A program made the position numbers and the translations under genes. A DNA stretch of 39,059 nt from Muribaculaceae bacterium. GTDB lineage: Bacteria > Bacteroidota > Bacteroidia > Bacteroidales > Muribaculaceae. The stretch spans positions 1 to 39,059 of the forward strand of contig JAFTFA010000192.1 of the NCBI GenBank assembly GCA_017449785.1. The letters run 5' to 3'. The notes beneath the pieces were generated by a model. It was not told where the DNA came from. It did not search any database and saw only the letters and a list, made by a program, of their open reading frames with translations. Positions 2-27,308 of the stretch are shown here, in pieces (position 1 is the stretch's first letter; each line of letters opens with the position of its first letter).

Positions 2-361
2 GCTTGGGCATGGCGCTACTCAAAGGCTAAATACAAGAAAGACATCCGGTCCGATTTTCTAACTTTCAGGCATCAATGGATGTTGTGGTGCGTTTGGCAG
101 AAATGTCGCCTCAATAAGAAGTTTGCGGAACTGCTGAAAAGCGTTCCCGATGATGTTGTCATTGTCGAGCATGTCAAGAAGCATGATCTCGTGTGGGCAA
201 CAAATTCGGACGAGAACGGCATTCTCCACGGCTGCAATGCCATGGGCAAGATTCTCACCATCAGCCGCCGACACCTCATCGTCGGGACTACACCCAAGAT
301 TGATACCGACCTCCTCAATGCGTCCAACATCTACATACTCGGACAACGACTCCAATTCTAA
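2..361 (+). CDS. NADAR-family protein, C-terminal part (cut by window edge)
   Basis: The frame is open from base 2 and ends at TAA 359-361, so 119 residues are visible and the N-terminus lies outside the window; the internal ATG at 80 is unlikely to be the start because coding-like sequence continues upstream of it. The closing part of the NADAR/YbiA fold can be read: a helix ending KFAELL, then IVEHVKKHDLVWAT (family pattern VE..xxD.iWg), then GCNAMGKILTISRR (family pattern G.N..GkiL...R). NADAR proteins are known as N-glycosidases on phosphorylated riboflavin intermediates and as hydrolases that remove ADP-ribose from guanine. Another NADAR gene and a NADAR remnant lie within 3 kb, together with ADP-ribosyltransferase-like and PARG-like genes, so a role in ADP-ribose metabolism is likely. 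The family call is fairly secure; the substrate is not known. Confidence 0.7.
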   Translation, partial: AWAWRYSKAKYKKDIRSDFLTFRHQWMLWCVWQKCRLNKKFAELLKSVPDDVVIVEHVKKHDLVWATNSDENGILHGCNAMGKILTISRRHLIVGTTPKIDTDLLNASNIYILGQRLQF

Positions 362-1232: not shown

Positions 1233-1799
1233 ATGGATTTAGAATTATCTTATGAGAATTTTCTGCAGTATTATCGCAGCCAAGAGTTTGAAAAAGGTCT
1301 TCAGAACTATTTCGGAGTAGGAGGATCAAAAAACGGCGGAGGTTGCCGTATAATCTTTAATGTTGATAGGCATATTTCAGAGCCGCATAGCAATGAACAT
1401 GAGAAATCCCTTTATTTTGCCATTATTTTCTATTACGTTTCCCTGTGCAATTATGCGATTTTTGAGGTTGCGGGCAAAGATACGATGATAAACTTTTTAA
1501 TGAGCACTAATTGGCCTATGGTCTATGGAGAGAACATGGCCTACAAGTCGCCCAATAGTGTTTTGAAAACGGCAGATCTTGTTTATGAGAAAGACTCTAC
1601 GAACTGTAAAAAGACTTACGCTTTATTCCGCGAAACTATTCCGTTAATGAAAGAGGAACTCAACAACTTCTTTAAGGGTGGTGCCGACAACTTGAACCAG
1701 GCAGCGTATAACGAATTTGTCAAAGCCATGGATGGTAAGATTGAGAAGTTCTGGGAGATTGCCGACAAAGAAATTGAGAGCTTCACCTTTCACAAGTAA
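1233..1799 (+). CDS. Uncharacterised protein, 188 aa
   Basis: I do not recognise this family. The predicted protein is soluble, with an N-terminal helix (residues 5-25), a glycine-rich turn around residues 28-40 containing GVGGSKNGGGCR, a hydrophobic aromatic segment near residues 60-80 and a helical C-terminal half. It lacks a signal peptide and any readable catalytic motif. It has its own promoter (1160-1189) and is followed after 4 bp by the 265-aa gene, so the two almost certainly form one transcriptional unit and may act together. Confidence 0.7.
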   Translation: MDLELSYENFLQYYRSQEFEKGLQNYFGVGGSKNGGGCRIIFNVDRHISEPHSNEHEKSLYFAIIFYYVSLCNYAIFEVAGKDTMINFLMSTNWPMVYGENMAYKSPNSVLKTADLVYEKDSTNCKKTYALFRETIPLMKEELNNFFKGGADNLNQAAYNEFVKAMDGKIEKFWEIADKEIESFTFHK

Positions 1800-1803: not shown

Positions 1804-2601
1804 ATGTCTAATGAAAGGGTCTTTGTTATGTTAATGACGGATTATCTTAAACAATGGGCAGAGGATATGCCGGAATGGTTGGCCAACTACCAACCTGGTG
1901 ACAATGTTGATTTCAGTGATTTCATGTCTGGCCGAATCGGTTATTATCCAGGTGCCGGTTACGATGGTTTCCTTATCGAGACGGCAAATAAAGCTCACTG
2001 CGCCCACTCATTCCTGTACGTTGATTACGATTACAGGCGAACACGTGAAAAGGTGGAATACGAACTGAGTAAGAAAGGCACCTTAAAGGGCTATCACTCG
2101 ATTGGTCGTGTGGAATGGTCTCACGAAGACTTAGTGCCACAAGGGGATTACCAATTACCAAGTAATCTATTGATTAGCAGAAAAGATCCAGAAACGTTTA
2201 TAGCAGAGAATGTCCAGCCTTTTTGCATCATGGAGATTTACGAGCGCAATCAAGATAGGGATGATTCATGGGGTTCCGAACGTCTAGCAGTCACCTATCT
2301 ATTTGCCGATGGTATAGCTACCTATTTTCAATTATTTGTGATGCAATACAAGAAAGCGCCCTGGTTGTTTTTATTACAAGATAACGGTTGGGGTATTAAC
2401 TACGATGCATTTGGAAAAGGCGGACTACTCCATCGCATCATCCGCCATTACAAAATGTTCCCCAATTTTGTTATTGAAGATAAATGCCCTTCGGGGATTT
2501 GGGATGGTTATCATCAAATTGATAATGTTGAACCTGATATTCGTGACATTAACGGTGTGGACAAAAGAATAAGGACTCTCTATCAAAAAGACGAAGAATA
2601 A
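1804..2601 (+). CDS. Uncharacterised protein, 265 aa
   Basis: The N-terminal third carries the distinctive segment GYYPGAGYDGFLIE (residues about 47-60) followed by AHSFLYVDY (about 67-76), a pattern I associate with conserved bacterial hypothetical proteins, but I cannot name a characterised family. Other readable blocks are DDSWGSERLAVTYLFADG (about 151-168) and DNGWGINYDAFGKGG (about 192-206). There is no signal peptide. It begins 4 bp after the stop of the 188-aa gene, so it is probably translated from the same mRNA. A start at one of the internal methionines (residues 9 or 11) is possible. It converges with the NADAR gene, leaving only 6 bp between the stops. Confidence 0.75.
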   Translation: MSNERVFVMLMTDYLKQWAEDMPEWLANYQPGDNVDFSDFMSGRIGYYPGAGYDGFLIETANKAHCAHSFLYVDYDYRRTREKVEYELSKKGTLKGYHSIGRVEWSHEDLVPQGDYQLPSNLLISRKDPETFIAENVQPFCIMEIYERNQDRDDSWGSERLAVTYLFADGIATYFQLFVMQYKKAPWLFLLQDNGWGINYDAFGKGGLLHRIIRHYKMFPNFVIEDKCPSGIWDGYHQIDNVEPDIRDINGVDKRIRTLYQKDEE

Positions 2602-2607: not shown

Positions 2608-3228
2608 CTATCTTTGTCCATCAGCTTTCTTGAGGGCGGCGATGAAGGTGAATGCGTCGTTGGGGAGGTGGTAATGGAGAGTGCCGCTGTTACGATGTTC
2701 CATGAGAAGGCGTCCGAGGAGATTGGGGCCGACGTAGTTGTTTCGGTCGGCTTTCACGCCCCATGCGTCGGGATTCTTCTTGGACATTAAGGTTTGGTCC
2801 TCGACGATGTATTTGCCAGCACTCGTCTGAAGCAGGTTGCGGAATTCGGGACATTGCTCATATTTGGTTGTAAGGCAGAACTTCATGGCGTCAAGTATCA
2901 TCCGTCCCCAGTCTGGACGGCGGTATGCTTTTTCGTAACTCTTGGCGGTCATCTTGATTTGATGGCAAGCCTTGCCGCCCATGGTGATACCGGCTCTGAT
3001 TCGGCGGATGACATCTTCATCTTTGAATTTCATCAGTTGGAACAACTCCTCGCTACTCTCGAATGTCACCCCGTTAACCACAAGCGGAGTAGGTGCGAAA
3101 TTGCTGAACAGGCCCCACTCGTCTTTCACCTTGCGAATGGGGATGCACTCGGCAATGGTGTAAGTCTCGATGCCGTAGTACTCGGGATAATACTCCTTGA
3201 TGAAATCAGCTATGCTATAGAAACTCAT
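2608..3228 (-). CDS. NADAR-family N-glycosidase/ADP-ribose hydrolase
   Basis: Complete 206-aa NADAR protein. Readable landmarks are WGLFSNFAPTPLVVNG (residues 38-53), the E-rich helix ESSEELFQLMKF (57-68), a DWGRMILDAM helix and, near the C-terminus, DAWGVKADRNN followed by GPNLLGRLLMEHR, the classic end of the fold. NADAR domains can remove ADP-ribose from guanine bases and serve as antitoxins of DarT2-type toxins; YbiA-type members act on riboflavin intermediates instead. Here the ATG overlaps the TGA of the ADP-ribosyltransferase-like gene (ATGA, bases 3225-3228), so the two are translationally coupled in the way toxin-antitoxin pairs usually are. That makes the ADP-ribose role more likely than riboflavin metabolism. 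Function in this host is inferred. Confidence 0.85.
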   Translation of the reverse strand: MSFYSIADFIKEYYPEYYGIETYTIAECIPIRKVKDEWGLFSNFAPTPLVVNGVTFESSEELFQLMKFKDEDVIRRIRAGITMGGKACHQIKMTAKSYEKAYRRPDWGRMILDAMKFCLTTKYEQCPEFRNLLQTSAGKYIVEDQTLMSKKNPDAWGVKADRNNYVGPNLLGRLLMEHRNSGTLHYHLPNDAFTFIAALKKADGQR

Positions 3229-3821
3229 CGTTTTACCTCGGTAATTGAGTCCGCAATCAGTTTGTTTTTGGCATCGACTTGCACCTGATCAATTCTGACA
3301 ATCTTGATGAGCGTGCTGTCTAAGACAGCGCGATTGGTGTCCCCGTCGGGTTTGGTCTGGGCTTGCGGCCACGCCAGATAGATGATGCCCTGTTCGCGAA
3401 GGAAGACGGATGCTGCATTCTCGGCCTCAGCATCAGCCTTGCCTGTCATCTGCTTGACTGTTCCTGTCTTGCCAACTTTTAGGTTGCCCACATATTTGCG
3501 GAAGAGTTTGCCGGCCGATAAGGCATCCTCTGGAATAGATGCGCTCAAAGCCCTCTCGACACGCTTAACAATGGCTGGATTGACCGGTCTGCACGAGAAC
3601 ACATGATTGTCTTCGGTCAAATCGGGCACTTCCAGTGTATAGACGTAGAAGGTATCAACGCCATTAGCTTTGCCGGCTTTAGCTGCATACAGGGCTGCGG
3701 TGGCATAGCTTGACGTGATGTAGATGCCTTGCCCAAACTTGGATTTTCCCTCTCCTTCACCTAGGTGGGCAATATCAAAATGGTCGAAAAGGCGGTAAGT
3801 GCCATGATAAAGGGTTTCCAT
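3225..3821 (-). CDS. ADP-ribosyltransferase-like protein (ART-PolyVal/DUF3990-like)
   Basis: The 198-aa protein opens with LYHGTYRLFDHFD (residues 4-16), followed by GEGEGKSKFGQGIYIT (21-36) and an alanine-rich helix, the arrangement seen in ART domains of phage polyvalent and MuF proteins (YHG...FDxF...GEG...GxGiY). His6 and Tyr34 would be the NAD-binding residues of the fold. The C-terminal block REQGIIYLAWPQ ... LDSTLIKIV also follows that family. I cannot place the third catalytic Glu/Gln with certainty. No signal peptide is visible, so it would act in the cytoplasm. It lies 51 bp downstream of the PARG-like gene and overlaps the NADAR gene by 4 nt, which suggests a modifier sandwiched between two enzymes that remove ADP-ribose. 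The target is unknown. Confidence 0.75.
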   Translation of the reverse strand: METLYHGTYRLFDHFDIAHLGEGEGKSKFGQGIYITSSYATAALYAAKAGKANGVDTFYVYTLEVPDLTEDNHVFSCRPVNPAIVKRVERALSASIPEDALSAGKLFRKYVGNLKVGKTGTVKQMTGKADAEAENAASVFLREQGIIYLAWPQAQTKPDGDTNRAVLDSTLIKIVRIDQVQVDAKNKLIADSITEVKR

Positions 3822-3872
3822 ATTCTGTACTTATTTGAATTCTTTCAAAGACTGATTTAATGCGCTATGGCA

Positions 3873-4688
3873 TTATCTGTCATCATCATTTCTAAACTCT
3901 TGAGCAAAAATGTCTTTGTTGATATCTCCACGAGTTGCTAAGGCGAACTCGACAATTTCGAACTTGTAGTTCTTCAAGAGTGTCTTGAATGTCCTGGCCA
4001 CTACTTCGATGGGATTCTTAAAGTCTCCACAGCCCCATTTGCCAAGGATGAGGACTTCGGCTTCTGCTTTTGCAGCCACATCAAGGATCCTCGTAATGCG
4101 TCGCGCTATTAGGGTCTCGTAATCATCGGGCTTTTTGTGGACATGCTTTAATTCTGGGGCGGCACAGGTGATGATATCCACCTTGTACCACTCCTCGCGA
4201 GGCATCATTTGGGGCCAAATCGGGTCGGTGCGCTCATCGGTCTTAAAGACGATGACATCTGGTGTATAGATGATATCATCATTGCCCATGTGGTCCAGCT
4301 CGCCTGCAGTATAAAGCCGAATGTGCCTCTCATAGAAGTCCTCTTTCATTGCCTGTAAGCATGGAAATAGAGTTGAACACCGACACAGCGACTCTTCCTG
4401 TGCTCCAGCCGAGAATGGGGCGCCACCGATACTGTGGTTATTGGCGAAGTTCAATACAGCCACTTTTTTGCCGCTATAGCCTTTTGCGGCTTCAAAACTT
4501 CGTCTTCCAGACACAACATACCGCGTGTTAGAGTTCTCAACTGGAGCGACTTCAACAACATCTTCTTGTGCTACCATGTATTGGCGTGAAATTGAGTTCT
4601 CCACTGCTGAGACCAATTCCGGCACAGTCTCATACTGACGCTGTGTGTCCAGCATCACATTGTAATTGATATTTCTGTAGCTATTCAT
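3873..4688 (-). CDS. Microbial-type poly(ADP-ribose) glycohydrolase, TIGR02452-like
   Basis: A 271-aa macrodomain-like protein. The catalytic loop of bacterial PARGs is present as VLNFANNHSIGGAPFSAGAQ then EE (residues 78-99): the catalytic QEE is at 97-99, but the usual triple glycine is IGGA here. The following LCRCSTLF is typical of the family, as is ILGKWGCGDFKN near the C-terminus. Such enzymes hydrolyse ADP-ribose chains or terminal ADP-ribose from protein. The frame opens further upstream (4733), but a TATATTTG promoter box at 4711-4718 lies inside that extension, so I prefer the ATG at 4688. It appears to head a short operon with the ART-like and NADAR genes. Confidence 0.85.
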   Translation of the reverse strand: MNSYRNINYNVMLDTQRQYETVPELVSAVENSISRQYMVAQEDVVEVAPVENSNTRYVVSGRRSFEAAKGYSGKKVAVLNFANNHSIGGAPFSAGAQEESLCRCSTLFPCLQAMKEDFYERHIRLYTAGELDHMGNDDIIYTPDVIVFKTDERTDPIWPQMMPREEWYKVDIITCAAPELKHVHKKPDDYETLIARRITRILDVAAKAEAEVLILGKWGCGDFKNPIEVVARTFKTLLKNYKFEIVEFALATRGDINKDIFAQEFRNDDDR

Positions 4689-4710
4689 AAGCGAAACAAT
4701 TATTGGTTGA

Positions 4711-4718
4711 CAAATATA
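4711..4718 (-). promoter_or_regulatory. Putative -7 element for the PARG-ART-NADAR unit
   Basis: On the minus strand these bases read TATATTTG, matching TAnnTTTG. No good TTTG box is seen 19-21 bp further upstream, so this is a partial match. Transcription would start near 4706, leaving a leader of about 18 nt to the ATG at 4688. Confidence 0.4.
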
Positions 4719-4759
4719 GTAATTTTCAGTCATACATCTAACGTTCTAAGCATTTACCG

Positions 4760-5220
4760 TTAAATGATTCTTTGAATTAACCTGAATTTGACTATCGACG
4801 CGATATGGTAGCATAATATAAATGGGAGGGAAAAGATGCTCTCCCGTTTATCTATATATCCTTTTCTCATCCAACTATGCCACACTTTTACGTTATATTG
4901 GCTTTCAATACGTTTGCACTCTTTGATAAATGCTATACCATGTTTTTTGCCTTTTCTATATTTTGCGTTACTGATAAGTGTGCCATTTCATGCAATAACA
5001 CTCTTTTCAGTATTTCTTCATTGCCAACGATTCTCTTGCTTACTTTAATGGATGGATTTTTGACACGACGATTTTTGTCGATTTCAAATTCAAATATGCC
5101 AACAATAGTTTTAAAACTTTTGCTAAGAAACCCCATCTTGGCACGCTTCAGTTTTCCCTCAAAATACAATTGGTTGTATTCGTCAAACCGCAGTCGTAAA
5201 TCCTCCTTTGCTATCTCCAT
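4760..5220 (-). pseudogene. SprT-like zinc peptidase, frameshifted (copy 1)
   Basis: The first 93 codons give a SprT-like domain: RFDEYNQLYFEGKLKRAKMG, then the zinc motif LLHEMAHLS (HExxH). The frame then ends early at a stop after KNMV (4933). If one base is added in the run of six A (minus strand, bases 4942-4947), the frame continues as KKHGIAFIKECKRIESQYNV, the expected third-zinc-ligand region seen as HGPRFLKAAAEMNEKYGL in the copy at 6084-6515. The restored gene would be about 153 aa. SprT/SPRTN-like peptidases are linked to removal of DNA-protein crosslinks. The gene is either inactive or carries a sequencing error. The 95-aa product would retain HExxH but lack the third ligand. Confidence 0.75.
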
Positions 5221-5229
5221 GTATATGTC

Positions 5230-5595
5230 TTACTTATATCTTTTTGTCGGTTCGTTGTCAATCCTGTAATCTACTGTCCAGCCGTCAGTAATGATGGTTA
5301 TGCTATGACGATAGCTGTCCTTTCGGCAACGGAAATCTCCTTCAAACCTATTCCCGACTTCGTGGCCGACAGATAAGTTAGTCGCATCATATCCCTCTTT
5401 TGTAAGGATCTTGAACACAACATTCTCTAATGCGCCTAAGGTATAGGCGTGATCATAGCCGTAGTCTTGAATGAATTTATACAATAAACTACGACCACCC
5501 GTTAATCGTTGGGCAATCCAAACAATTAACAGCACTCCTATGACGATGGGAATGGAGATTATTAGTACAATTCCCAATGCTTCTAAAAAATCCAT
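5230..5595 (-). CDS. Small membrane-anchored protein of unknown function
   Basis: 121 aa. One hydrophobic membrane segment spans residues 7-28 (ALGIVLIISIPIVIGVLLIV), with a basic QRLTGGR after it, so the remainder probably faces the cytoplasm. The soluble part has an alternating pattern suggesting a small alpha/beta domain (ALENVVFKILTKEGYDATN; ITIITDGWTVDYRID). I do not recognise a family. It sits between two SprT-like genes on the same strand, 9 bp from copy 1 and 29 bp from copy 2, so it is probably co-transcribed with them. Confidence 0.65.
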   Translation of the reverse strand: MDFLEALGIVLIISIPIVIGVLLIVWIAQRLTGGRSLLYKFIQDYGYDHAYTLGALENVVFKILTKEGYDATNLSVGHEVGNRFEGDFRCRKDSYRHSITIITDGWTVDYRIDNEPTKRYK

Positions 5596-5624
5596 GATAT
5601 CTCTTTTAAATCGTTAATATTGAA

Positions 5625-6079
5625 TCAAGTCAGATTATAGTAGATTCGCCTCACGAACTCTCCCCACCTAGTGGTCGGGACTCTTTCGTTCTTGTGATAT
5701 AGATTGGAATTACCATGAATATGTATCTTCAAGCCATATTTGCGTTTAATCCTCTTAACTTGTCTGCGGAATCGTTTCCCATGGCCGAATAAACCATACC
5801 AGCTGAACCCTCAATTCCCTTGCAGCCGTCGATAGCAACTACATAGTGATGTATCATTTCATGAATGAGCACGTCCCTAAGAGTCTCCTCTGTCCAGTTA
5901 ACGTCACTAGTCAACCTGATGCGGTACTTACGTTTGCCGTTCTTTCCAGAAGAGAACATATAACGGCCAAGGCAACTCAATTTAATAACGGAGAACTCGC
6001 ACTGGGGCAGCACTGAGTTGAAATACTGATGGTTATACTCGTCAAAACGTACCTTCAAGTCTTCTTTCGTTATCTTCAT
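5625..6079 (-). pseudogene. SprT-like zinc peptidase, frameshifted (copy 2)
   Basis: The N-terminal frame gives RFDEYNHQYFNSVLPQCEFS, then WTEETLRDVLIHEMIHHYV with the HExxH zinc motif. It runs out in an unrelated tail ending at 5729. In the next frame the correct tail is found: FGHGKRFRRQVKRIKRKYGL then KIHIHGN, ending at TGA 5625-5627. One base is missing somewhere between about 5782 and 5810; adding it gives a 151-aa protein that matches copies 1 and 3 in length and layout. It starts only 4 bp after the stop of copy 3. The current 116-aa product would lack the downstream zinc ligand. Confidence 0.75.
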
Positions 6080-6083
6080 ATGG

Positions 6084-6515
6084 TTAACTTGCTGGTGCCC
6101 AGAAGAATCGGGCCAATGAACGCTTGGGTGCTGCTGCGCTGACCTTCAGTCCACGCAAATTCGGATGAACCTGGATATTCAAGCCATATTTCTCGTTCAT
6201 CTCGGCTGCCGCTTTCAGGAATCGTGGGCCGTGCATTTTCTTCTCGACATTCTTGGAACGCTCCAGCTTGTAGTGCAACATCTCGTGGACGAGGACATCG
6301 CGAAGATATTCCTCGGTCCAGTCATAGTACATCGAGATTCCGATTCTGACATTGCGCAGCCTGCTGCCAGGCGAATGCTGATTGCAGCTGAAACGGCCAA
6401 AACACCTGAATGACCTGATCAGATAGAACTCATAGGGCCACAGCAGACGACCGCCGAAGTACAACTTGTTATACTCTTCGAACTTCTCCTCTAATAGTTC
6501 AACTGTTATTACCAT
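6084..6515 (-). CDS. SprT-like zinc peptidase, intact (copy 3)
   Basis: 143 aa, the only undamaged member of a tandem triplet. It begins EEKFEEYNKLYFGGRLLWPY, the usual SprT-like opening, continues with WTEEYLRDVLVHEMLHYKL (zinc ligands in HEMLH, catalytic Glu between them) and MHGPRFLKAAAEMNEKYGL, where the His is the expected third ligand. No signal peptide. SprT-like peptidases of this length are frequent in Bacteroidales, and eukaryotic relatives (SPRTN, Wss1) digest proteins crosslinked to DNA. Whether this one does so is not known. The clustering with ADP-ribose enzymes makes a nucleic-acid or protein repair role plausible. Confidence 0.85.
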   Translation of the reverse strand: MVITVELLEEKFEEYNKLYFGGRLLWPYEFYLIRSFRCFGRFSCNQHSPGSRLRNVRIGISMYYDWTEEYLRDVLVHEMLHYKLERSKNVEKKMHGPRFLKAAAEMNEKYGLNIQVHPNLRGLKVSAAAPKRSLARFFWAPAS

Positions 6516-6981: not shown

Positions 6982-7726
6982 TTAGTCATCTGGAGCGCAG
7001 ATGAAACCCAATTCGTACAGTTCGTCCTGCTCTTCATCGGACAAGTTGCCGTATTCTTCATCACTGATGAAGCGCTTGTCCATGGTGACGCGGCCTTTGA
7101 CGCCGTCCTTGATGAAGGTGAAATCATCCCCGATGCCATTGTCGATGATGTCGTCATATTCGGGTGAGATATAAATCAGTGAGCCCATCCCTATGATGCC
7201 GTATTTGTCGTTATCGCCTTTCAAAATGATATGATCATCACAAGGCCTGTAATAGTAGACCAACTCGTAAGGGGTGAAGACTTTGCCCAATATGATGATG
7301 GCAAAATGATGTAAGTCTTCGGACTTGAAAGCAATATTGAATGGGGGTGAACGGGATGGGTTCCACATAATGGAATTCAAAGTCTGTACGCGGTGTGCCC
7401 TTGCCGTCACGCTCCACCAGTGCGACCTTGTCGCCTTTCTTTGCCCCCACAAGCAACATGGGCAGATAATAGGGGCGCGGTATGAGGAAATCATCATAGA
7501 TGGCCGGCACCACCACTTCCCCGCGAACATTGCGCAATCCTTTCTTGCCGTTCTCTTCAAAGACCTCGTCGTACCAGTCATATCCAAACATCAGCTCATG
7601 TTGCTCCTGCAGAAGGCTCAAATAGTTGTCGGCTTCTCGTCCAACGCGTTCAATTTCGTGCTTGAGGAAATCCAGTCTATCGGCCTGTACTGCTGTAGCT
7701 CTCGGTGTTTTTTCTTTGTCGTTCAT
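6982..7726 (-). pseudogene. WG-repeat-like protein, frameshifted
   Basis: The N-terminal frame contains a WG-repeat-like unit: KKGLRNVRGEVVVPAIYDDF (residues about 58-77). After FEFHYVEPIPFTP the frame goes astray at a run of five G on the plus strand (7343-7347). Removing one base restores PFNIAFKSED and continues through DKYGIIGMGSLIYISPEYDD to a stop at 6982. The total length of 745 bases becomes an exact multiple of three after one deletion, giving 247 aa. WG-repeat (KWG Leptospira-type) proteins are frequent in Bacteroidetes accessory regions and are thought to mediate binding. The gene is either phase-variable, dead or mis-sequenced. Confidence 0.75.
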
Positions 7727-7738: not shown

Positions 7739-8458
7739 TTATTGTTTTATAAGTTTGTTTTCGTAAAAGTTATTATCCTCTATCACCAAATAGGAGCCGT
7801 TGTCCAGCGCGTCACACAACCAAAGGTTATTTGGAATGTCGCTTGAGTTCTTCACGTTGAAGCAATGCTCCACTGGTGTATGACCGACCACTTGGTCATA
7901 GCCCGGAATCATTACATTGACCAATGTCTCCGGTCGGATCCATGTGGGTGGCTGTTCGGGTGAGGTTCCATAAATATCCCGCGGATCGCTAGAGCAGAAT
8001 CCAAATCGCTCGCTTGGGTCGAGTGAATTGATTCTGTCTAAAGTGAGATGATTTGACTCAAGCCACTTCGTCGAAATCCCAGCATGGCTAAATATCGTGT
8101 TGCCCATGATATGAATCCATTGGGTGTTGGCAAGGAATTCCTCTTTGAGATCCGTCATTAACTCAGCAACCCATGGAAAGTACCCACTACATTCCGCCCA
8201 ATAATAGCCCAAATGTTGCATATCGTGGTTGCCGCGCAGCAAGATGGTCTCGGGATGGTGATCCTTGAAACGCAGGATTTCCAAGAGGTTTGACACCTGA
8301 TCCGACTCGGAAATACCTTCATGGGACGAAACATAATCCCCCAAGAAAATCAACTGATCGGGCTGCTCTTTATCTATGATATCCTTCCACACAGTGAGAC
8401 CATGTATGTCTCCTAATACAACTATTTTCATTCTATTATTGTCGATGTTGTTTCCCAT
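7739..8458 (-). CDS. Calcineurin-like metallophosphoesterase
   Basis: 239 aa with the five-block metal signature: GDIHG (residues 18-22), GDYVSSHE (41-48), GNHDMQH (about 76-82), a later FSHAG (about 126-130) and GHTPVEHC near the C-terminus, which together bind a dinuclear metal centre. Such enzymes hydrolyse phosphomono- or diesters, for example diadenosine tetraphosphate or protein phosphates; the specificity cannot be read here. No signal peptide. The start at 8458 is followed by a second candidate at 8431 (MKIVVLGDIHG), which places the first beta strand right at the N-terminus and is the more typical start for the family. It lies 4 bp after the stop of the 145-aa gene. Confidence 0.85.
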   Translation of the reverse strand: MGNNIDNNRMKIVVLGDIHGLTVWKDIIDKEQPDQLIFLGDYVSSHEGISESDQVSNLLEILRFKDHHPETILLRGNHDMQHLGYYWAECSGYFPWVAELMTDLKEEFLANTQWIHIMGNTIFSHAGISTKWLESNHLTLDRINSLDPSERFGFCSSDPRDIYGTSPEQPPTWIRPETLVNVMIPGYDQVVGHTPVEHCFNVKNSSDIPNNLWLCDALDNGSYLVIEDNNFYENKLIKQ

Positions 8459-9598: not shown

Positions 9599-11344
9599 TC
9601 ACGCCACGAAGCCGACACGGCGACGGTCACTCATTGTGTCGTTGATGCGCTCTTCGCGGCACAAGGTGGTCAGTTCGGTCAAGCGGTCGGTCTGCTCAAG
9701 ATCGCCCAAGATACCGTCGATGGCATATTTGCGAGCCACGTTCTCAATCTGACCGCCACTGAAGTCGAATCCTTCGGCCAGCGTCTTGCACTCGTTGTCG
9801 CCCAGTTCAGGTAGCATCGCGTGCCAGATGTGCTCTCTCACGCTCACGTCGGGACGCTCAAACTCCACCTTGTAGAGGAAGCGGCGCTCGAAGGCGCTGT
9901 CCAGATTCTCGGTCAAGTTGGTGGTGGCTATCATAATGCCGTTGAGGGTCTCCATCTCTTGCAAGATGATGTTTTGGATGGAGTTCTCCATTTTGTCGAC
10001 CGCGTTCTCAGCTCCAGTCTTGCGGACCTCGATGATGGCGTCAGCCTCGTTGAACAGCAGAATGGGTGCTACCTCGGACTTTGCCACCATTGAGCGGTAT
10101 TTCTCGAAAACAGCCTTGATGTTCTTCTCGCTTTCGCCGACCCATTTGCTCTTGATATCGGGAACTTCGATAGCCATTATGTCGCGGCCAGTCTGTCGAG
10201 CGAGCTGATAGACGGTCTAGGTCTTGCCAGTTCCCGGTCCGCCGTACATCAAGCAAGTGAGCCCGCAGCGGTTGAAACGTTCCTTCATACGCTCCACAAG
10301 CACCTTATAATTCTCATTGTCGAGAAAGCCGCGCAGCTTGTCCACTTGCTTGCCCACCTTGTCACTGTAAAACAGATTCTTGGTGGTGATGCTATCGGCT
10401 TGGATGACCCCACTCAGTTTCACTTCTTTGGTCTTGAGATCAATGGATGCGAGCAGTTCTGTGCGAGCTTTCTCGGTTAACGTGAAACTGTTAGTGTCTG
10501 CAACTCCATTATGACACGAAAACTCAATTAGCTCACACAGCATCAGCAAATGATTTCCCGAACGCAGCTCAGCCTTAATACGAGCAAAGTCACTCTTGTT
10601 GGGGAAGATATCGTCAAGCTGATAGAAACTGAGTTCAGAATCGTCTTCGTTGACGAGTTTGTCGCAGAATTCGATGAGCAAGAGGCGGTCTTTGGCCCCC
10701 AATGGATACTGATTGACCTTCTTGACGAAATCCAAGTCGGTGTTCTCGCTGAAGATCTCTTCGACTTCTTCAAGCAGCAATCCTTGCTTGATGCCTTCTT
10801 CTTCCAGTTCGTTGAAGAAGTCGTGATAATAGCCCAGCAGACTCTCGGTATCAGTGAAGTTGCGCTGTGGTGCTTCGTAATCCGCATTGGCGATGAGCGA
10901 CCTGAGGGCTCTAGCCGAGATGTTGTAGGACGAAGCCTTGTTGCCGAAACTATTCGTGAGGCCCAGCAGACGGCACCGCACCAGCTCGTTGAGTGTGTCG
11001 ACAAGCGACAGTGCTTGCGCATTGGAATAGCGCAATGCTCTAGCGAAGCTCTTGAAGTCAATGTTTGAGGGCCCGACTTCAACGCAGATACAGAAGACCG
11101 CAGCTTGCATGGGGGTGATGTGCAATCGCTTGGCCAGATAATCGACATTGTTCCCCCGCACCTCGGACAAGATGAGGTCGTCGTCACTCTCGCGGACATA
11201 GGTTGAGAGCTTGGCGTTGATGTTGTCGATTGCTTCAAGCAGTGACTTGGGCTTTTTGCGGGTCCCCAGACTGACGCCTTTCGACTTGTTCTTGACAGCC
11301 TTGCACTCTTCTTTGGAAATGATTTTGTTTTTATTCGTACTCAT
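9599..11344 (-). pseudogene. AAA-family ATPase interrupted by an in-frame amber codon
   Basis: Read through, this is one 581-codon frame. The first 375 residues are a helical N-terminal region ending exactly at Walker A (YGGPGTGKT). The next codon is TAG (10217-10219), and the same frame continues with TVYQLARQTGRDIMAIEV, KWVGESEKN (pore-loop and sensor region), the Walker B ILLFNEADAII, the sensor-1 ATTN and arginine-finger region LDSAFERRF. A single base change from GAG (Glu) or CAG (Gln) explains it. This AAA type is frequent in Bacteroidales accessory loci. As written, the first product lacks the ATPase core; a fragment restarting at 10177 would lack the P-loop. TAG acts as a normal stop for the gene ending at 962, arguing against general recoding. 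Confidence 0.8.
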
Positions 11345-15414: not shown

Positions 15415-16431
15415 TTATTTCTCGAGTTCCTTCTTGATGCGCTCGGTCAACATGGGGACAATCTTGTGAAGGTCGCCGACGATGCCCAGATCAGCCACGC
15501 TGAAGATGGGGGCGAACTTGTCCTTGTTGATAGCGATGATGAAGTCGCTCTCTTCCATACCTGCAAGGTGCTGGATAGCGCCGCTGATACCGCAAGCCAT
15601 GTAGAGACCCGGACGAACGGTCTTACCCGTCTGGCCGACCTGTACCTCGTGAGGCATCACACCGTTATCTACCATGGCACGCGACGAAGCCACCTGACCG
15701 CCGAGGACATCGGCGAGGGCCTGCAACTTGTCGAAGCCTTCCTTGTCATGCACGCCACGACCACCGCTGACGAGGATCTTGGCCTCGCTGATGTCGGCCA
15801 TCTGCTTGTCGGCCTTGATGGTCTTGACGAGTTTTACCTTGAACTTGCTGGCATCAAACTGGGGAGCAAACTCGGTGACGACACCCTGACGGCCCTCCTG
15901 GCGCTGCATCTTCTGCATCACACCGGGACGGACGGTTGACATCTGCGGACGGTTATTCGGGCAGATGATGGTTGCCATCAGGTTACCGCCAAAGGCGGGA
16001 CGAGTCATGCGGAATTCGGGCTCACCATCCTTGTCGGGCTCAATCTCGAGCTTGGTGCAGTCGGCGGTCAGACCGGTCTTGAGGCGCGAAGCGATGCGCG
16101 GAGCCAGGTCACGGCCGATGGTGGTGGCACCATAGAGGACGATGCTGGGCTTGCACTCGGTGATAATCTGGCCAACAGCCTGGGAGTACTGCTCGCTCAG
16201 GAAGTCCTTCAACTCGGGAGCATCGGCAACGATCACCTCGTCGGCACCGAACTCGATGAGCGTCTGGGCCTGATCCTTGATACCTTGACCGAGGAGCATG
16301 GCTACGACCTTCTCGCCGAGGGCATCGGCCAGGTCACGAGCCTTACCTAAAAGTTCAAATGCGACGGGCTGGATGACACCCTCACGCTGCTCGGCAAAAA
16401 CGAATACGTTCTTATAATCTTTCTTATCCAT
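15415..16431 (-). CDS. etfA: Electron transfer flavoprotein alpha subunit
   Basis: 338 aa, last gene of the lysine operon. The N-terminal half has the adenine-nucleotide alpha-hydrolase-like fold (VFVFAEQREGVIQPVAFELL). The C-terminal FAD-binding domain carries ILVSGGRGVHDKEGF, VASSRAMVDNG and LYMACGISGAIQHLAGM, all canonical. EtfA holds FAD and passes electrons between NADH-linked EtfB and butyryl-CoA dehydrogenase; in butyrate-forming anaerobes the complex bifurcates electrons to ferredoxin. Length and context fit that clade, but bifurcation cannot be proved here. I place the start at 16429-16431 (MDKKDYKNV) because the longer frame runs through the heptamer repeat element. Confidence 0.93.
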   Translation of the reverse strand: MDKKDYKNVFVFAEQREGVIQPVAFELLGKARDLADALGEKVVAMLLGQGIKDQAQTLIEFGADEVIVADAPELKDFLSEQYSQAVGQIITECKPSIVLYGATTIGRDLAPRIASRLKTGLTADCTKLEIEPDKDGEPEFRMTRPAFGGNLMATIICPNNRPQMSTVRPGVMQKMQRQEGRQGVVTEFAPQFDASKFKVKLVKTIKADKQMADISEAKILVSGGRGVHDKEGFDKLQALADVLGGQVASSRAMVDNGVMPHEVQVGQTGKTVRPGLYMACGISGAIQHLAGMEESDFIIAINKDKFAPIFSVADLGIVGDLHKIVPMLTERIKKELEK

Positions 16432-16440
16432 AATATTCAG

Positions 16441-16594
16441 TTTTAAGTCCTTAGTTTTTAGTTGCAAGTGTTTCTCTTTAGTTCTTAGTTTTTGGTTGTA
16501 AGCATAATGTGTATCTCCCGGGAAAGGTAATATCACTTGAAACTTACAACTTAAAACTTATAACTTAAGACTTACAACTTAAAACTTAAAACTC
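16441..16594. repeat. Inverted heptamer array, copy 1 (etfB-etfA spacer)
   Basis: The left arm is a row of seven-base units such as TTTTAAG, TCCTTAG, TTTTTAG and TTGTAAG. The right arm has eight units of the form CTTANAA in direct tandem. The core between them (16504-16535) includes GTATCTCCCGGGAAAGG and resembles the core of copy 2. The arms are reverse complements in consensus, so the transcript could fold into a long imperfect stem between the etfB stop and the etfA start. Confidence 0.85.
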
Positions 16595-16597
16595 ATT

Positions 16598-17380
16598 TTA
16601 GATAATGTGTTTAACTTTGAGTTGATTAACAATGAGCTCGACAGCCTCTTCGGGGGTCACCTCATGCACCTCACCGGGAGCCTTCATGGCCTTGGGGAAG
16701 GACTTGAAGACCTTGGTGGGCGAACCGGCGAGACCGAGCTTGCCCTCATCGACGTCGATCTTGTCGGCACTCCAGACCTCAACTTCCTTGTCATAGGCCT
16801 CCATGATGCCGCTGACGCTCATGTAGCGGGGCTCAAAGGCGGAGGCGAGCACGGTCAACAGGCACTTGCCCTCGACCTCGAGGACCTGTACGCCATCCTC
16901 GTTCTCCTTGTCCACCTGCAGGTTGCCATTGTCAAGCACCTTGGCATCGGCAACATAGGTGATCTGGGGCAGACCCAGGTGCTCGGCGAGCTCGGGGCCC
17001 ACCTGGGCGGTATCACCATCGATGGCCTGGCGGCCGGCAATGATCAGGTCATAGTCCAGGACACGGCACAGGCCGGACAGGGCATAGGACGTTGCCAACG
17101 TGTCGGCACCGGCAAACTTGCGGTCGCTCAACAGGATGGCACGGTCGGCACCCATGGCGAGTGCCTCGCGCAGCATGACGTCGGCTTGGGGAGGACCCAT
17201 CGAGATGACGGTGACATTGGCACCGAACTGGTCTTTCAGCCTCAATGCGAGTTCAAGGCCGCCCTTGTCATCGGGGTTCATGATGCTGGGAACGCCTTCG
17301 CGAATCAAAGTACCCTTCACGGGGTCAATCTTGACAACGGTGGTATCGGGAACTTGTTTAATGCAAACAATTATATTCAT
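16598..17380 (-). CDS. etfB: Electron transfer flavoprotein beta subunit
   Basis: 260 aa. Opens with MNIIVCIKQVPDTTVVKID, the EtfB hallmark, then NPDDKGGLELALRLKD, VTVISMGPPQADVMLREALA, DRAILLSDRKFAGADTLATS and AGRQAIDGDTAQVGPELAEH, which form the nucleotide-binding core. EtfB pairs with EtfA in the cytoplasm; in bifurcating types it holds the NADH-reacting FAD. Following directly on bcd and before etfA, it is the electron carrier for the crotonyl-CoA reduction step of the operon. Confidence 0.95.
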   Translation of the reverse strand: MNIIVCIKQVPDTTVVKIDPVKGTLIREGVPSIMNPDDKGGLELALRLKDQFGANVTVISMGPPQADVMLREALAMGADRAILLSDRKFAGADTLATSYALSGLCRVLDYDLIIAGRQAIDGDTAQVGPELAEHLGLPQITYVADAKVLDNGNLQVDKENEDGVQVLEVEGKCLLTVLASAFEPRYMSVSGIMEAYDKEVEVWSADKIDVDEGKLGLAGSPTKVFKSFPKAMKAPGEVHEVTPEEAVELIVNQLKVKHII

Positions 17381-17386
17381 ATCTTC

Positions 17387-17487
17387 TTTTAGTTTTTAGT
17401 TTTTAGTTCTCAGTTGTAAGCATGGTCTGTATCACCTGGGAAAAAGGGAATATCACTTAAAACCCACAACTTAAAACTTATAACTTA
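17387..17487. repeat. Inverted heptamer array, copy 2 (bcd-etfB spacer)
   Basis: Left arm units TTTTTAG, TTTTTAG, TTCTCAG, TTGTAAG; core GTATCACCTGGGAAA and AATATCACTT, clearly homologous to copy 1; right arm CTTAAAA, CCCACAA, CTTAAAA, CTTATAA, CTTATTT. The last unit includes the TAA stop of bcd (17485-17487). Confidence 0.85.
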
Positions 17488-18624
17488 TTTGAATAACTGA
17501 CCGGCGATAACCATGCGCTGAACCTCGGATGTACCTTCATAGATCTCGGTAATCTTGGCATCACGCATCATGCGCTCAACGGGATACTCACGAGTATAAC
17601 CATATCCACCGTGGAACTGGACGGCCTTGGTCGTCACTTCCATAGCGGTCTCGGCAGCAAAGAGCTTAGCCATAGCGGCATCGGCACTGTAGGGCAGGTG
17701 CATGTCCTTCTTCCAGGCAGCACTGCGCACGAGCAGACGGGCAGCCTCGACCTTGGTCTTGAGGTCAGCCATCTGGAACTGGGTGTTCTGGAACTTGGCG
17801 ATAGCGCGGCCAAACTGCTTGCGCTCCTTGGTGTACTTGACGGTCTCGTCCATGGCACCCTGGGCAATGCCGAGGGCCTGGGAAGCGATACCGATGCGGC
17901 CGCCATCCAGCGTCATCATGGCAATCTTGAAGCCTTTGCCAAGCTGGCCGAGGAGGTTCTCCTTGGGCACGATGCAGTTTTCAAAAATCAACTCACAGGT
18001 AGCGCTGCCGCGGATACCCATCTTCAACTCCTTCTTGCCGATGGAGAAACCAGGCATACCCTTCTCGACGATGAAGGCCGAGATGCCCTTGGTGCCCTGC
18101 GACTTGTCGGTCATGGCCATGACGATGAAGACGTGGGCGTTAGAAGCGTTGGTGATGAAGATCTTGGAGCCGTTGAGCACCCAGTGGTCACCAGCGTCGA
18201 CAGCGGTGGTCTGCTGCATGGCAGCGTCGGTACCGGCATTGGGCTCGGTCAGACCGAAGGCGCCAATCCACTCACCCGAAGCGAGCTTGGGCAAGTACTT
18301 CATCTTCTGCTCCTCGGTGCCGTGCTCCATGATGGGAGCCACGCACAGCGAGGTGTGAGCCGACAGGACAACACCCGTCGTGGCACACACGCGGGAGAGT
18401 TCCTCAACAGCCATGATATACATCTGCACGGTACCACCGGCACCGCCATACTGCTTGGGGACAGGAATACCCATCATGCCGAGCTTACCCATTTTCTCGA
18501 CCGTCTCGATGGGGAAGCGTTCCTGCTCGTCAATCTCGGCGGCAAGGGGCTTTACCTCGTTCTCTGCAAAGGAACGTACCATCTGCAGGAACAGTTGTTC
18601 AGTCTTAGAATAGCTAAAATCCAT
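17485..18624 (-). CDS. bcd: Butyryl-CoA (short-chain acyl-CoA) dehydrogenase
   Basis: 379 aa, the normal family length. Conserved blocks: EQERFPIETVEKMGKLGMMG (N-terminal helical domain), AFGLTEPNAGTDAAMQQTTA (FAD/substrate loop), WVLNGSKIFITNASNAHV, GGRIGIASQALGIAQGAMD and the C-terminal YTREYPVERMMRDAKI with the catalytic Glu363 in IYEGTSEVQRM. It reduces crotonyl-CoA to butyryl-CoA, taking electrons through EtfAB encoded just downstream. In this operon its crotonyl-CoA comes from Kal and from crotonase. Confidence 0.93.
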   Translation of the reverse strand: MDFSYSKTEQLFLQMVRSFAENEVKPLAAEIDEQERFPIETVEKMGKLGMMGIPVPKQYGGAGGTVQMYIMAVEELSRVCATTGVVLSAHTSLCVAPIMEHGTEEQKMKYLPKLASGEWIGAFGLTEPNAGTDAAMQQTTAVDAGDHWVLNGSKIFITNASNAHVFIVMAMTDKSQGTKGISAFIVEKGMPGFSIGKKELKMGIRGSATCELIFENCIVPKENLLGQLGKGFKIAMMTLDGGRIGIASQALGIAQGAMDETVKYTKERKQFGRAIAKFQNTQFQMADLKTKVEAARLLVRSAAWKKDMHLPYSADAAMAKLFAAETAMEVTTKAVQFHGGYGYTREYPVERMMRDAKITEIYEGTSEVQRMVIAGQLFK

Positions 18625-18630
18625 ATTGTC

Positions 18631-18737
18631 TTTTTAAGTTTTTAGTTTTTAGTTCTAAGTTGTAAGTATCACGTGATACACATCGCTTGAAGGAGGTAGT
18701 ATCCCTTAAAACTTACAACTTAGAACTTACAACTTAA
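18631..18737. repeat. Inverted heptamer array, copy 3 (hbd-bcd spacer)
   Basis: Left arm units TTTTTAG, TTTTTAG, TTCTAAG, TTGTAAG; right arm CTTAAAA, CTTACAA, CTTAGAA, CTTACAA. AGTTCTAAGTTGTAAGT and ACTTACAACTTAGAACT are perfect 17-bp complements. The core contains a 14-bp palindrome, GTATCACGTGATAC (18666-18679). Confidence 0.85.
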
Positions 18738-18740
18738 TGA

Positions 18741-19577
18741 TTAATACTTGTAGAAACCTTCACCGGTCTTGCGGCCCAGCAGGCCAGCGCGGACCATCTT
18801 GCGCAGCAGCGGGTGAGGACGATACTTGGGATCGCCAAACTCGTTGTAGAGCACTTCCATGATGGCGAGGTTCACGTCGTTGCCGATGAGGTCGGCCAGT
18901 GCGAGGGGACCCATGGGATGGTTGGCACCCAGCATCATGCACTTGTCGATGTCCTCGGCGCTGGCAATACCGTCGGCCAGGATGCCCACTGCCTCGTTGA
19001 TCATCGGGATGAGAATGCGGTTAACGACAAAACCGGGAGCCTCGTTCACGGGCACGGGGGTCTTGCCGATCTGGGTCGTCAGGTCGATGATGCACTGGGC
19101 AGTCTCGTCGCTGGTGAGCTGGCCCTTGATGACCTCAACCAGAGCCATGCGGTCGGCAGGATTGAAGAAGTGGCAGCCGATGAACTGAGCGGGACGGCTG
19201 GTGCATGCTGCGATCTCGGTAATCGAGAGAGACGATGAGTTGGTAGCGAAGATGGTCTCGGGCTTGCAGATCTTGTCCAGCTCCATGAAGACGTCCTTCT
19301 TCAACTGCATGTTCTCGACAGCAGCCTCGATAACGAGGTCGGCGTCCGCAAAGGTGGCATAGTCGGTCGTCGTGGTGATGTTGGCCAGGATAGCCTTCAT
19401 GGCATCCTCGGTGATCTTACCCTTCTCGACCAGCTTGTTGTAACCCTTGGAAATCGAAGCCATAGCCTTGTCCAGACTCTCCTGGGTGCGGCTCTTCATG
19501 ACAACGGGCATCTTGGCGGCAAATGCCTTGACGATACCCTTGGCCATCGTACCAGTTCCAATAACACAAATTTTCAT
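18741..19577 (-). CDS. hbd: 3-hydroxybutyryl-CoA dehydrogenase
   Basis: 278 aa. N-terminal NAD-binding motif [20 protein letters not shown]; catalytic residues visible as Ser115 (ATNSSSLSI), His136 ([11 protein letters not shown]) and Glu148 (ALVEVIKG); C-terminal dimer domain with [18 protein letters not shown]. The enzyme reduces acetoacetyl-CoA to 3-hydroxybutyryl-CoA. It is not needed for the core lysine pathway, so its place in the operon suggests that acetoacetyl-CoA from the CoA-transferase step can also be reduced to a second butyrate. The glycine motif is GTGTMA rather than GxGxxG, which is common in this subgroup. Confidence 0.93.
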
Positions 19578-19621
19578 GATTCTGTTTATTTATTGATTAT
19601 TAATGATTTAGTTCTTAATAT

Positions 19622-20398
19622 TTATTGTCCGGTAAAATCTGCCTTACGCTTGTTGAGGAAGGCATCCATACCCTCCTTCTGGTCACGGGTGGCGAAGCAC
19701 TTGCCGAAGAGTTTATTCTCGTTGGCAATGGCGCCGTCGGCATCCATGTCATAGCCCTCGTTGATGCTCTGCTTGGCCAGGCTGATGGCCACGGGAGCAT
19801 TCTTGAGCATCATCTGGGCCATTTCCATGGCCTTGTCCATCAGCTCCTCGGGCTCATAGACAGCATTGACCAGGCCGATGCGCAGGGCCTCATCGGCGCG
19901 GATCACCTTGCCCGTGTAGATCATCTCCTTGGCATAGCCCTGGCCGACGAGCTTGGGAAGGCGGCAGGTCCCTGAGAAACCGGGGATGATGCCCAGGCCG
20001 ACCTCGGGCTGGCCGAACTTGGCCTTGCTGGAGGCGATGCGCACGTCGCAGGCCATCGCCAGTTCACAACCGCCACCCAGGGCGAAGCCGTTGACAGCGG
20101 CAATGACGGGAATGGGCAACGTCTCGATGCGGCGGAACACCTGTGCACCCAGGCGGCCGAACTCAAAGCCTTCCTGCTCGTTGAGGTGGGCCATCTCGGA
20201 GATATCGGCACCGGCGACAAAGGACTTCTCGCCGTCGCCCGTGACGATGAGCACGCGCGTCGAGGCATCCAGGCTGCCGATGAAGGCATCCAGTTCCTTG
20301 AGGATAGTGGAGTTGAGTGCATTCAACGACTTGGGAGCCGAGATCTTCATCACGGTGACACCCTCGTTGTGCTCAACCTTCAAGAATTGATATTCCAT
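19622..20398 (-). CDS. crt: Enoyl-CoA hydratase/crotonase
   Basis: 258 aa, usual length. The oxyanion-hole segments are SLNALNSTILKELDAF (24-39) and GDGEKSFVAGADISEM (54-69); NGFALGGGCELAMACDVRIA carries the first catalytic Glu112 and FGQPEVGLGIIPGFSG the second, Glu132. It interconverts 3-hydroxybutyryl-CoA and crotonyl-CoA. It lies between atoA and hbd with short spacers (19 and 44 bp), and thus joins Hbd and Bcd into an acetoacetyl-CoA to butyryl-CoA branch. Confidence 0.93.
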   Translation of the reverse strand: MEYQFLKVEHNEGVTVMKISAPKSLNALNSTILKELDAFIGSLDASTRVLIVTGDGEKSFVAGADISEMAHLNEQEGFEFGRLGAQVFRRIETLPIPVIAAVNGFALGGGCELAMACDVRIASSKAKFGQPEVGLGIIPGFSGTCRLPKLVGQGYAKEMIYTGKVIRADEALRIGLVNAVYEPEELMDKAMEMAQMMLKNAPVAISLAKQSINEGYDMDADGAIANENKLFGKCFATRDQKEGMDAFLNKRKADFTGQ

Positions 20399-20417
20399 GA
20401 CTCAAAGGGGAGAAAAA

Positions 20418-21077
20418 TCAGATATCCATGGGCTTGAGATCCGGCGAGATGATGAGCTTGGCCTCGGTTGCGGCCTGCACGTCCTCGACGGTGAACTCGG
20501 GATGCAGCTCGCGCAGGACGATGCCCTCGGGGGAGATGTCCATGACGCCCATCTCGGTGATGATCATATTGACCTGTCCGGCAGCGGTCAGCGGCAGCGT
20601 GCACTCCTTCAAGATCTTGGGGTTGCCCTTCTGGGTGTGCTCCATGGTGAGGATCACGCGCTTGGCACCCACAACGAGGTCCATTGCACCGCCCATGCCG
20701 GGAGCCATCTTGCCAGGGATAATCCAGTTGGCCAGGTTACCCTTCTCGTCGACCTGCAGAGCGCCCAGGAACGACACGTTCACATGGCCGCCACGGATGA
20801 TGGCAAACGACGTTGCCGAGTCAAAGGTGCAAGCACCGGGATTCAACGTGATGGCACCGCCACCGGCATTGATCAGGTTCTTGTCCTCCTTGCCCTCTTC
20901 GGGGGTGGGGCCCATGCCCATGGCGCCGTTCTCGGTCTGGAGCGTTACTGAAACGCCCTCGGGCAGGTAGTTAGGGATTAAGGTGGGGATACCGATACCC
21001 AGGTTCACAACATCGCCGTCGTGCAGCTCTTTGGCAGCACGTTTTGCGATGACTTCTCTCATTTGATATTTATCCAT
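20418..21077 (-). CDS. atoA: Acetoacetate:butyrate-type CoA-transferase subunit B
   Basis: 219 aa. The active-site glutamate that forms the CoA thioester is Glu49 in VTLQTENGAMGMG; other family blocks are DVVNLGIGIPTLIPNYLP, LINAGGGAITLNPGA, GMGGAMDLVVGAKRVI and the closing ADV-type region. It pairs with the alpha subunit, which in this genome is encoded about 9 kb away at the head of the same operon rather than alongside. In lysine fermentation this enzyme swaps CoA between butyryl-CoA and acetoacetate. Confidence 0.93.
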   Translation of the reverse strand: MDKYQMREVIAKRAAKELHDGDVVNLGIGIPTLIPNYLPEGVSVTLQTENGAMGMGPTPEEGKEDKNLINAGGGAITLNPGACTFDSATSFAIIRGGHVNVSFLGALQVDEKGNLANWIIPGKMAPGMGGAMDLVVGAKRVILTMEHTQKGNPKILKECTLPLTAAGQVNMIITEMGVMDISPEGIVLRELHPEFTVEDVQAATEAKLIISPDLKPMDI

Positions 21078-27291: not shown

Positions 27292-27308
27292 AATTGAATA
27301 ATCAATGA

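What the first reader, a model, noticed from the sequence alone, without database searches (positions are those of the whole stretch)
2608..4688. Possible compact ADP-ribosylation system: PARG + ART-like + NADAR
Three consecutive minus-strand genes encode a microbial-type PARG, an ADP-ribosyltransferase-like protein and a NADAR protein. The ART-like stop and the NADAR start overlap by 4 nt (ATGA), as in toxin-antitoxin pairs. Known systems pair DarT2 with NADAR or with a macrodomain; a non-DarT ART with both kinds of eraser in one unit is not an arrangement I recognise. A module that modifies a nucleic acid or protein with ADP-ribose, guarded by two different hydrolases, would fit an anti-phage or self-regulating role.
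Basis: partly seen in the sequence, partly recalled or inferred. Interest (0 to 1): 0.82.

Follow-up and report, generated by a model that had tools for sequence, protein, structure and literature searches.

The report
ADP-ribosyltransferase–NADAR gene pair with PARG
A bacterium related to Prevotella carries a small enzyme that probably attaches ADP-ribose to something in its own cell, paired with a second enzyme that probably removes it, which looks like a new branch of known toxin-antitoxin pairs, sometimes with extra clean-up enzymes beside it.

Summary
The three minus-strand genes are real: NADAR 2608-3228, ART-like 3225-3821 (ATGA overlap) and microbial-type PARG 3873-4733. AlphaFold2 gives the middle protein a confident ART fold (pLDDT 87.8, pTM 0.81). 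Its triad reads H6-Y34-N163, with Asn in 19 of 19 homologues where PARP1 has Glu.

The conserved unit is ART-NADAR. NADAR is downstream, fused, or one PfkB-type gene away in 20 of 20 loci whose ART I judged intact. Four genomes with a decayed ART have no PF08719 match. That asymmetry, purifying selection and similar trees fit a toxin-antitoxin pair.

PARG is an accessory: it is in or beside the cluster in 4 of 18 loci with enough upstream sequence, and a same-genus genome keeps the island and PARG without ART-NADAR. Still, PARG is enriched in ART genomes, and locus L006 is a predicted HD-PARG-ARH-ART-NADAR operon.

DarT1-NADAR and YarT-YbiA are published, so the kind is known. This Bacteroidales subfamily, its H-Y-N motif and its changing partners look new. 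Toxicity, target and phage defence are untested.

The parts
2608..3228 (-). NADAR (YbiA-type) ADP-ribosylhydrolase, proposed antitoxin
   Evidence: PF08719 58.5 bits; closest PDB sequence E. coli YbiA 2b3w, 4.8e-14; E60 and E143 in 21 of 21 aligned NADARs
3225..3821 (-). ART with H6-Y34-N163 motif, proposed toxin
   Evidence: AlphaFold2 pLDDT 87.8, pTM 0.81; matches to PARP, diphtheria-type and Arr structures; sub-threshold PF18760/PF13151
3225..3228 (-). ATGA overlap of ART stop and NADAR start
   Evidence: sequence; -4 or -1 nt overlaps in 6 of the 19 loci listed (the fused L043 is not in that list)
3873..4733 (-). Microbial-type PARG macrodomain protein (accessory eraser)
   Evidence: PF10021 86.2 bits, TIGR02452 122.2 bits; solved PARGs 1.2e-18 and 1.2e-15
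1804..2601 (+). Island gene of unknown function, convergent with NADAR; not specific to the module
   Evidence: matches in 5 of 200 relatives; 2 of the 5 (G401, G024) have it among SprT genes without ART-NADAR
1233..1799 (+). Unknown gene beside 1804-2601 in this genome and in G016

Best explanation
ART-NADAR is a two-gene toxin-antitoxin module found here in Bacteroidales. The ART (PARP/diphtheria-like fold, H-Y-N motif) transfers ADP-ribose from NAD+ onto a cellular target, most likely guanine bases of DNA or RNA. NADAR, translated from the overlapping downstream gene, hydrolyses that mark and keeps the cell alive. When NADAR is lost or overwhelmed the mark accumulates and growth stops, which would suit phage defence or island maintenance. 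PARG is an optional second eraser carried by the same island type; in this genome it probably covers other linkages (2'-OH or phosphate-end ADP-ribose). Shown by computation: the genes, the ART fold, the conserved pairing, purifying selection, and decay of ART in the four genomes where NADAR is missing. Inferred: catalysis, guanine target, toxicity, defence role, division of labour between NADAR and PARG.
For: ART fold. NADAR directly downstream of ART, fused to it, or beyond one PfkB-type gene, same strand, in 20 of 20 loci. 16 of 16 family genomes with an ART judged intact have NADAR at the locus; 4 of 4 with a decayed ART have no PF08719 match at E 0.001 (Fisher p 2e-4; decay). NADAR can outlive ART: G149 keeps NADAR plus a PfkB fragment. 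ART and NADAR trees agree (Mantel r 0.50, 0 of 5000 permutations, 19 loci). dN/dS 0.035-0.077 by NG86. NADARs reverse guanine ADP-ribosylation; PARGs reverse 2'-OH and phosphate-end RNA ADP-ribosylation (PMC11543638 passages; PMC11125620 parts 1-3 of 6; PMC11833690 abstract and Discussion).
Against: No activity or toxicity data. The third catalytic residue is Asn, so activity could be weak or different. 16-of-16 against 0-of-4 partly reflects decay of a whole locus, and the genomes are mostly draft assemblies, the four with decayed ART being 82-99% complete. The window's genome holds a second NADAR on another contig (180.7 bits), which might also act. A toxin-first gene order is unusual for many toxin-antitoxin pairs, although DarTG shares it (recalled). 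Of 10 proteins tested against PADLOC, 5 had a hit at E 0.001, and none of these shows a complete defence system.
Confidence: 0.68

Rival explanations
1. PARG-ART-NADAR is one functional unit: one ART makes two kinds of adduct, and two different hydrolases are both needed.
For: Three separate arrangements put PARG in or beside the ART-NADAR cluster (window/G016; G033; L006). PARG in 4 of 16 ART genomes against 8 of 381 others. PARG, ART and NADAR have similar dS between window and G016 (1.16, 0.98, 1.17), unlike the flanking genes 1804 and 1233 (0.48, 0.32) (NG86).
Against: 14 of 18 loci have no PARG found in the held flank. In G235 the PARG is on another contig than the ART. G279 keeps PARG without ART-NADAR in the same island, and homology stops 23 bp past the PARG stop. 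The PARGs are very different from one another (about 29% identity).
Confidence: 0.15
2. The module makes or clears a small ADP-ribose-type molecule (signal or metabolite), with PfkB kinase, SIS-like, HD, ARH and PARG as processing enzymes; the ART is not a toxin.
For: A PfkB-family gene lies between ART and NADAR in 5 of 20 loci (broken in one), overlapping the ART by 4 nt in all 5, and within the held flank of 2 more. A protein with weak similarity to phosphosugar isomerases follows NADAR in L040 and is fused to ARH in the L006 operon. Soluble ADP-ribose derivatives are proposed NADAR substrates (PMC9503650 passages).
Against: 13 of 20 loci show no PfkB gene in the held flank (some flanks are short). 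Decay of ART in the absence of NADAR fits toxicity better.
Confidence: 0.12
3. The ART is catalytically dead or is a sensor, because Asn replaces the catalytic Glu; NADAR and PARG guard against foreign ARTs.
For: N163 in 19 of 19, no Glu/Asp/Gln at that column. PARGs can protect against a foreign RNA-targeting ART (PMC11833690).
Against: H6, Y34, N163 and seven other checked residues are invariant in 19 of 19, and dN/dS is 0.035. Dead enzymes usually lose such residues.
Confidence: 0.05

Closest known systems
YarT-YbiA toxin-antitoxin pair (myxobacteria; PMC11125620, parts 1-3 of 6 read)
   Same: DarT-unrelated ART with a YbiA-type NADAR antitoxin in one operon; toxicity and rescue shown there
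   Different: YarT is 114 aa with an H-Y-E motif and lies downstream of YbiA; here 198 aa, H-Y-N, upstream of NADAR, in Bacteroidales, at times with PARG, ARH or PfkB neighbours. The two ARTs were not compared directly.
DarT1-NADAR (DarTG1; PMC11543638, passages read)
   Same: ART toxin in an operon with a NADAR antitoxin; guanine ADP-ribosylation shown there
   Different: No DarT family match in this ART; its NADAR has Ile where, by inference, the DarT1-linked NADAR has its catalytic Asp
DS-32 (NCBIfam NF053875/NF053876)
   Same: Two-gene unit whose second protein is a NADAR; window NADAR scores 102.9 bits with that model
   Different: First protein is PRTase-CE, not an ART; window NADAR is far under the cut-off of 240
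PADLOC candidate PDC-M42
   Same: Weak hits of ART to M42A (13.7 bits) and of NADAR to M42C (23.8 bits)
   Different: Composition and function of PDC-M42 could not be checked; a search for the name found no paper. The ART scores better with a PDC-M13 model (19.3 bits).

Membership tests
NADAR superfamily, YbiA family | PF08719 match over cut-off | tested here: met
   58.5 against 35.1 bits
NADAR superfamily, YbiA family | Glu in the last strand (Asp in BC4488, His in phage type, per PMC11125620) | tested here: met
   E143 aligned with a YbiA Glu; 21 of 21. That this is the catalytic Glu is inferred from the papers.
Microbial-type PARG | PF10021 over cut-off and QEE motif (motif recalled) | tested here: met
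   86.2 against 23.5 bits; QEE aligned with a solved PARG, 5zdf
ART superfamily, H-Y-[E/D/Q] clade | ART fold | tested here: met
ART superfamily, H-Y-[E/D/Q] clade | H and Y of the triad | tested here: met
   H6 and Y34 in 19 of 19
ART superfamily, H-Y-[E/D/Q] clade | Third residue E, D or Q | tested here: not met
   N163 in 19 of 19; placed by end-range arithmetic against PARP1 and tankyrase 2, whose residue numbers are recalled
DarT1-NADAR (DarTG1) | ART of the DarT family | tested here: not met
   No DarT-type family among Pfam hits at E<=1 or NCBIfam hits
YarT-YbiA | DarT-unrelated ART paired with YbiA-type NADAR | tested here: met
YarT-YbiA | ART homologous to YarT, H-Y-E motif | tested here: inconclusive
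   Motif differs (Asn); YarT sequence not compared
Toxin-antitoxin system | ART toxic, NADAR relieves | not testable with these tools
   Needs expression in cells
Toxin-antitoxin system | Toxin not kept intact without antitoxin | tested here: met
   0 of 20 loci with an ART judged intact lack NADAR; 4 of 4 genomes with decayed ART have no PF08719 match
DS-32 | PRTase-CE partner; NADAR over NF053876 cut-off | tested here: not met
   ART partner; 102.9 against 240 bits
PDC-M42 | Component models A, B, C | tested here: inconclusive
   Weak A and C hits only

The most novel reading that the evidence does not exclude
A Bacteroidales ADP-ribosylation cassette whose H-Y-N transferase makes an unusual nucleic-acid adduct, or more than one kind, removed by NADAR with changing help from PARG or ARH, the released ADP-ribose then being handled by PfkB-type kinase, SIS-like and HD proteins in the same gene clusters: a writer, several erasers and a recycler in one exchangeable module.
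Probability: 0.15. Interest if true: 0.8.

Novelty: new variant of a known kind. Interest (0 to 1): 0.55.

Why it matters
It would add a further ART family to those paired with a NADAR, in a major group of gut bacteria, with a motif (H-Y-N) outside the set described for the clade. It gives natural material to test whether NADAR alone controls such an ART, and why some lineages add PARG or ARH. A fused ART-NADAR protein and the decayed copies make the toxin-antitoxin prediction directly testable.

Tried and rejected
Three-gene unit as the conserved module: rejected as a general rule (14 of 18 loci show no PARG; G279). Gene 1804-2601 as a fourth component: rejected, because it also sits in SprT islands without ART, although it lies directly upstream of ART in L004. 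DS-32 membership: rejected. Phage or plasmid cargo: no tblastn match of ART at E 0.01 in 72,556 plasmid or 50,697 phage records; in IMG/VR the one contig found with ART and NADAR is L040/L130, and none of 10 of its ORFs scanned matched a structural phage family. More distant ART hits in L067 and L068 had no NADAR of this clade in their held stretch. A viral scan with the PARG found nothing. PDB sequence search with ART profiles gave no convincing ART: PARP12 at E 0.88, and an acireductone dioxygenase at 2.7e-4 that I take for chance. A first tree comparison (Mantel r 0.15) used a wrongly framed L043 NADAR row and was redone with the frame corrected. Phylum sample: 1 of 395 genomes, the window's own. 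Literature: searches for NADAR+ART+phage, NADAR with PARG/ART/operon/defense, YarT+YbiA, PDC-M42, NADAR+PfkB, NADAR+ART+Bacteroid, ART+NADAR+toxin-antitoxin+macrodomain since 2024 and PADLOC candidates listed no title on this module; I saw listings only, except the papers named in the full report. The main text of the DefensePredictor paper does not name DS-32 (find).

Full report
Observation. NADAR and PARG score over the curated Pfam cut-offs, and PARG also over its NCBIfam cut-off; the ART-like protein only approaches two ART families (ART-PolyVal, DUF3990) and has no DarT hit.

ART-NADAR is the conserved unit. In a sample of 397 genomes of the window's family, 30 had some match to the ART profile. 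Of these I full or nearly full (G431 is cut by a contig start; G033 is fused and short at the ART's end; G230 holds ambiguous bases) and 4 decayed (G191, G324, G385, G248); the other 10 were weak matches, several in much longer ORFs, and were dropped before the counts. Second weak or broken pieces in genomes already counted (as in G132, G406, G431) were not counted either; one, G132 contig 44, joins an ART start to a NADAR end in one frame. Adding L004, L005 and L006 and viral contig L040 gives 20 loci (L003 and L059 are one locus, counted once; the contig is 94,127 bases in both). In 20 of 20, NADAR lies downstream on the same strand: directly in 15, one of them (G033) as a single fused ORF, and after a PfkB-family gene (broken in G178) in 5. 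A PF08719 search of 20 of those genomes found NADAR at the ART locus in 16 of 16 with an ART judged intact, and no match at E 0.001 in 4 of 4 with a decayed ART (decay seen; Fisher p 2e-4). Several of the 16, the window's genome among them, hold further NADARs elsewhere. The reverse is looser: of 20 genomes with a high-scoring NADAR of this clade (224 bits or more), 16 have ART and 4 do not. Two of the 4 (G352, G334) are cut by contig ends; of the other two, G349 has an in-frame stop and G149 keeps NADAR beside a truncated PfkB. ART and NADAR trees agree (r 0.50, 0 of 5000). The module was seen in 1 of 395 genomes of a phylum-wide sample, the window's own.

NADAR type. The closest solved sequence is E. 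coli YbiA (2b3w). E60 and E143 are invariant in 21 of 21 aligned NADARs, 17 of them ART-linked (three of the 20 ART loci were left out of that alignment); K92 and K96 are in 17 of 21, and in all 17 ART-linked ones. By PMC11125620 (parts 1-3 of 6 read) a Glu in the last strand marks the YbiA family; PMC11543638 (passages read) reports NADARs to reverse guanine ADP-ribosylation.

PARG is an accessory. PF10021 occurs in 12 of 397 family genomes. Three of those 12 genes are directly upstream of ART (G000, G016, G033). PARG is in 4 of 16 ART genomes against 8 of 381 others (p 7e-4; genomes are related, so this p value is optimistic; in the fourth, G235, PARG is on another contig). Of 18 ART loci with at least 1500 bases upstream, 4 have PARG: window, G016, G033 and L006 (in L006 one gene lies between). 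L006 is a tight predicted operon HD (match just under cut-off) - PARG - 770-aa protein with an ARH end - ART - NADAR, with gaps of -14, 16, 12 and 12 nt. Against a three-gene unit: G279 has the same SprT island and PARG but no ART and no NADAR of this clade; homology with the window ends 23 bp past the PARG stop, and identity inside PARG falls from 94-98% to 82-88% towards ART, so a recombination joint probably lies inside PARG. In favour: dS between window and G016 is 0.98-1.17 for ART, NADAR and PARG but 0.32-0.48 for the two genes beyond NADAR, as if the three were exchanged as a block.

Other partners. ARH lies about 1.6 kb beyond NADAR in G016 and 2.7 kb upstream of ART in G417, and in the L006 operon. 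PfkB is at 7 of 20 loci in the held flanks. A protein with weak similarity to phosphosugar isomerases (SIS, name recalled) follows NADAR in L040 and is related to the first part of the 770-aa L006 protein. In L049 the ORF that holds NADAR runs on into a metallophosphatase (named by eye) related to window gene 7739-8458. Of 10 proteins tested against PADLOC, 5 had a hit at E 0.001: a DNA methyltransferase (L048), a type I specificity-like protein (L004), HerA/SspH-like (L005) and IetA-like (L059) ATPases, and a weak PDC-S10 hit of window gene 7739-8458; five had none. The first 12 kb of the window has GC 0.39-0.51 against 0.49-0.61 beyond, as for an acquired island.

Comparison with the known. 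DarT1-NADAR and YarT-YbiA already establish ART-NADAR toxin-antitoxin pairs (PMC11543638, PMC11125620). PMC11833690 (abstract and Discussion read) shows that NADARs act on guanine in RNA, and PARGs on 2'-OH and phosphate-end RNA ADP-ribosylation; in PMC13036486 (passages read) the NADARs and bacterial PARG-like proteins tested were inactive on uracil-ADP-ribose. PMC9503650 (passages read) and PMC7824862 (passages read) propose soluble ADP-ribose derivatives as substrates of phage NADARs, the basis of the signalling rival. NADAR-containing DS-32 is a different pair, PRTase-CE plus NADAR.

Verdict. A real, well-conserved ART-NADAR pair, most likely a toxin-antitoxin module, with PARG as an optional neighbour. 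New variant of a known kind; interest 0.55.

Noticed in passing
window 9599-11344: AAA ATPase (IetA-like in a relative) lies in two ORFs here but in one 582-aa ORF in G016 (L059:14065-15813): frame break or assembly error.
   Followed up: partly
window 6982-7726: One gene, a 247-aa ORF in L003 (1830-2573), is split over two overlapping frames in the window.
   Followed up: no
window 2-358 (+); L059:9627-10019: Weak trace (E 0.004 in the window, 1e-5 in G016) of a decayed second NADAR; in G016 it lies just upstream of PARG.
   Followed up: partly
window 4933-6515: Three SprT-like genes upstream of PARG; the same set recurs in G279, and SprT genes in the G401 and G024 islands.
   Followed up: partly
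L046, L050, L051, L052, L047: PfkB-family kinase gene between ART and NADAR, overlapping the ART stop by 4 nt in all five; broken in L047.
   Followed up: partly
L043:8223-9323: ART and NADAR fused in one 366-aa ORF (draft genome contig).
   Followed up: yes
L049:1002-2390: NADAR ORF runs on into a protein related to window gene 7739-8458.
   Followed up: partly
L085:5864-10339: PARG, a possible WYL-type regulator (by eye) and a 454-aa NADAR-like protein together without this ART.
   Followed up: no
L062, L063, L064: DS-32 pairs (PRTase-CE plus NADAR) in plasmid-collection records of Vibrio, Methylobacterium and Klebsiella.
   Followed up: partly
window 15415-30554: Read by eye from translations: electron-transfer flavoprotein, acyl-CoA dehydrogenase, CoA-transferase and lysine aminomutase type genes, perhaps lysine fermentation to butyrate; not searched.
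   Followed up: no
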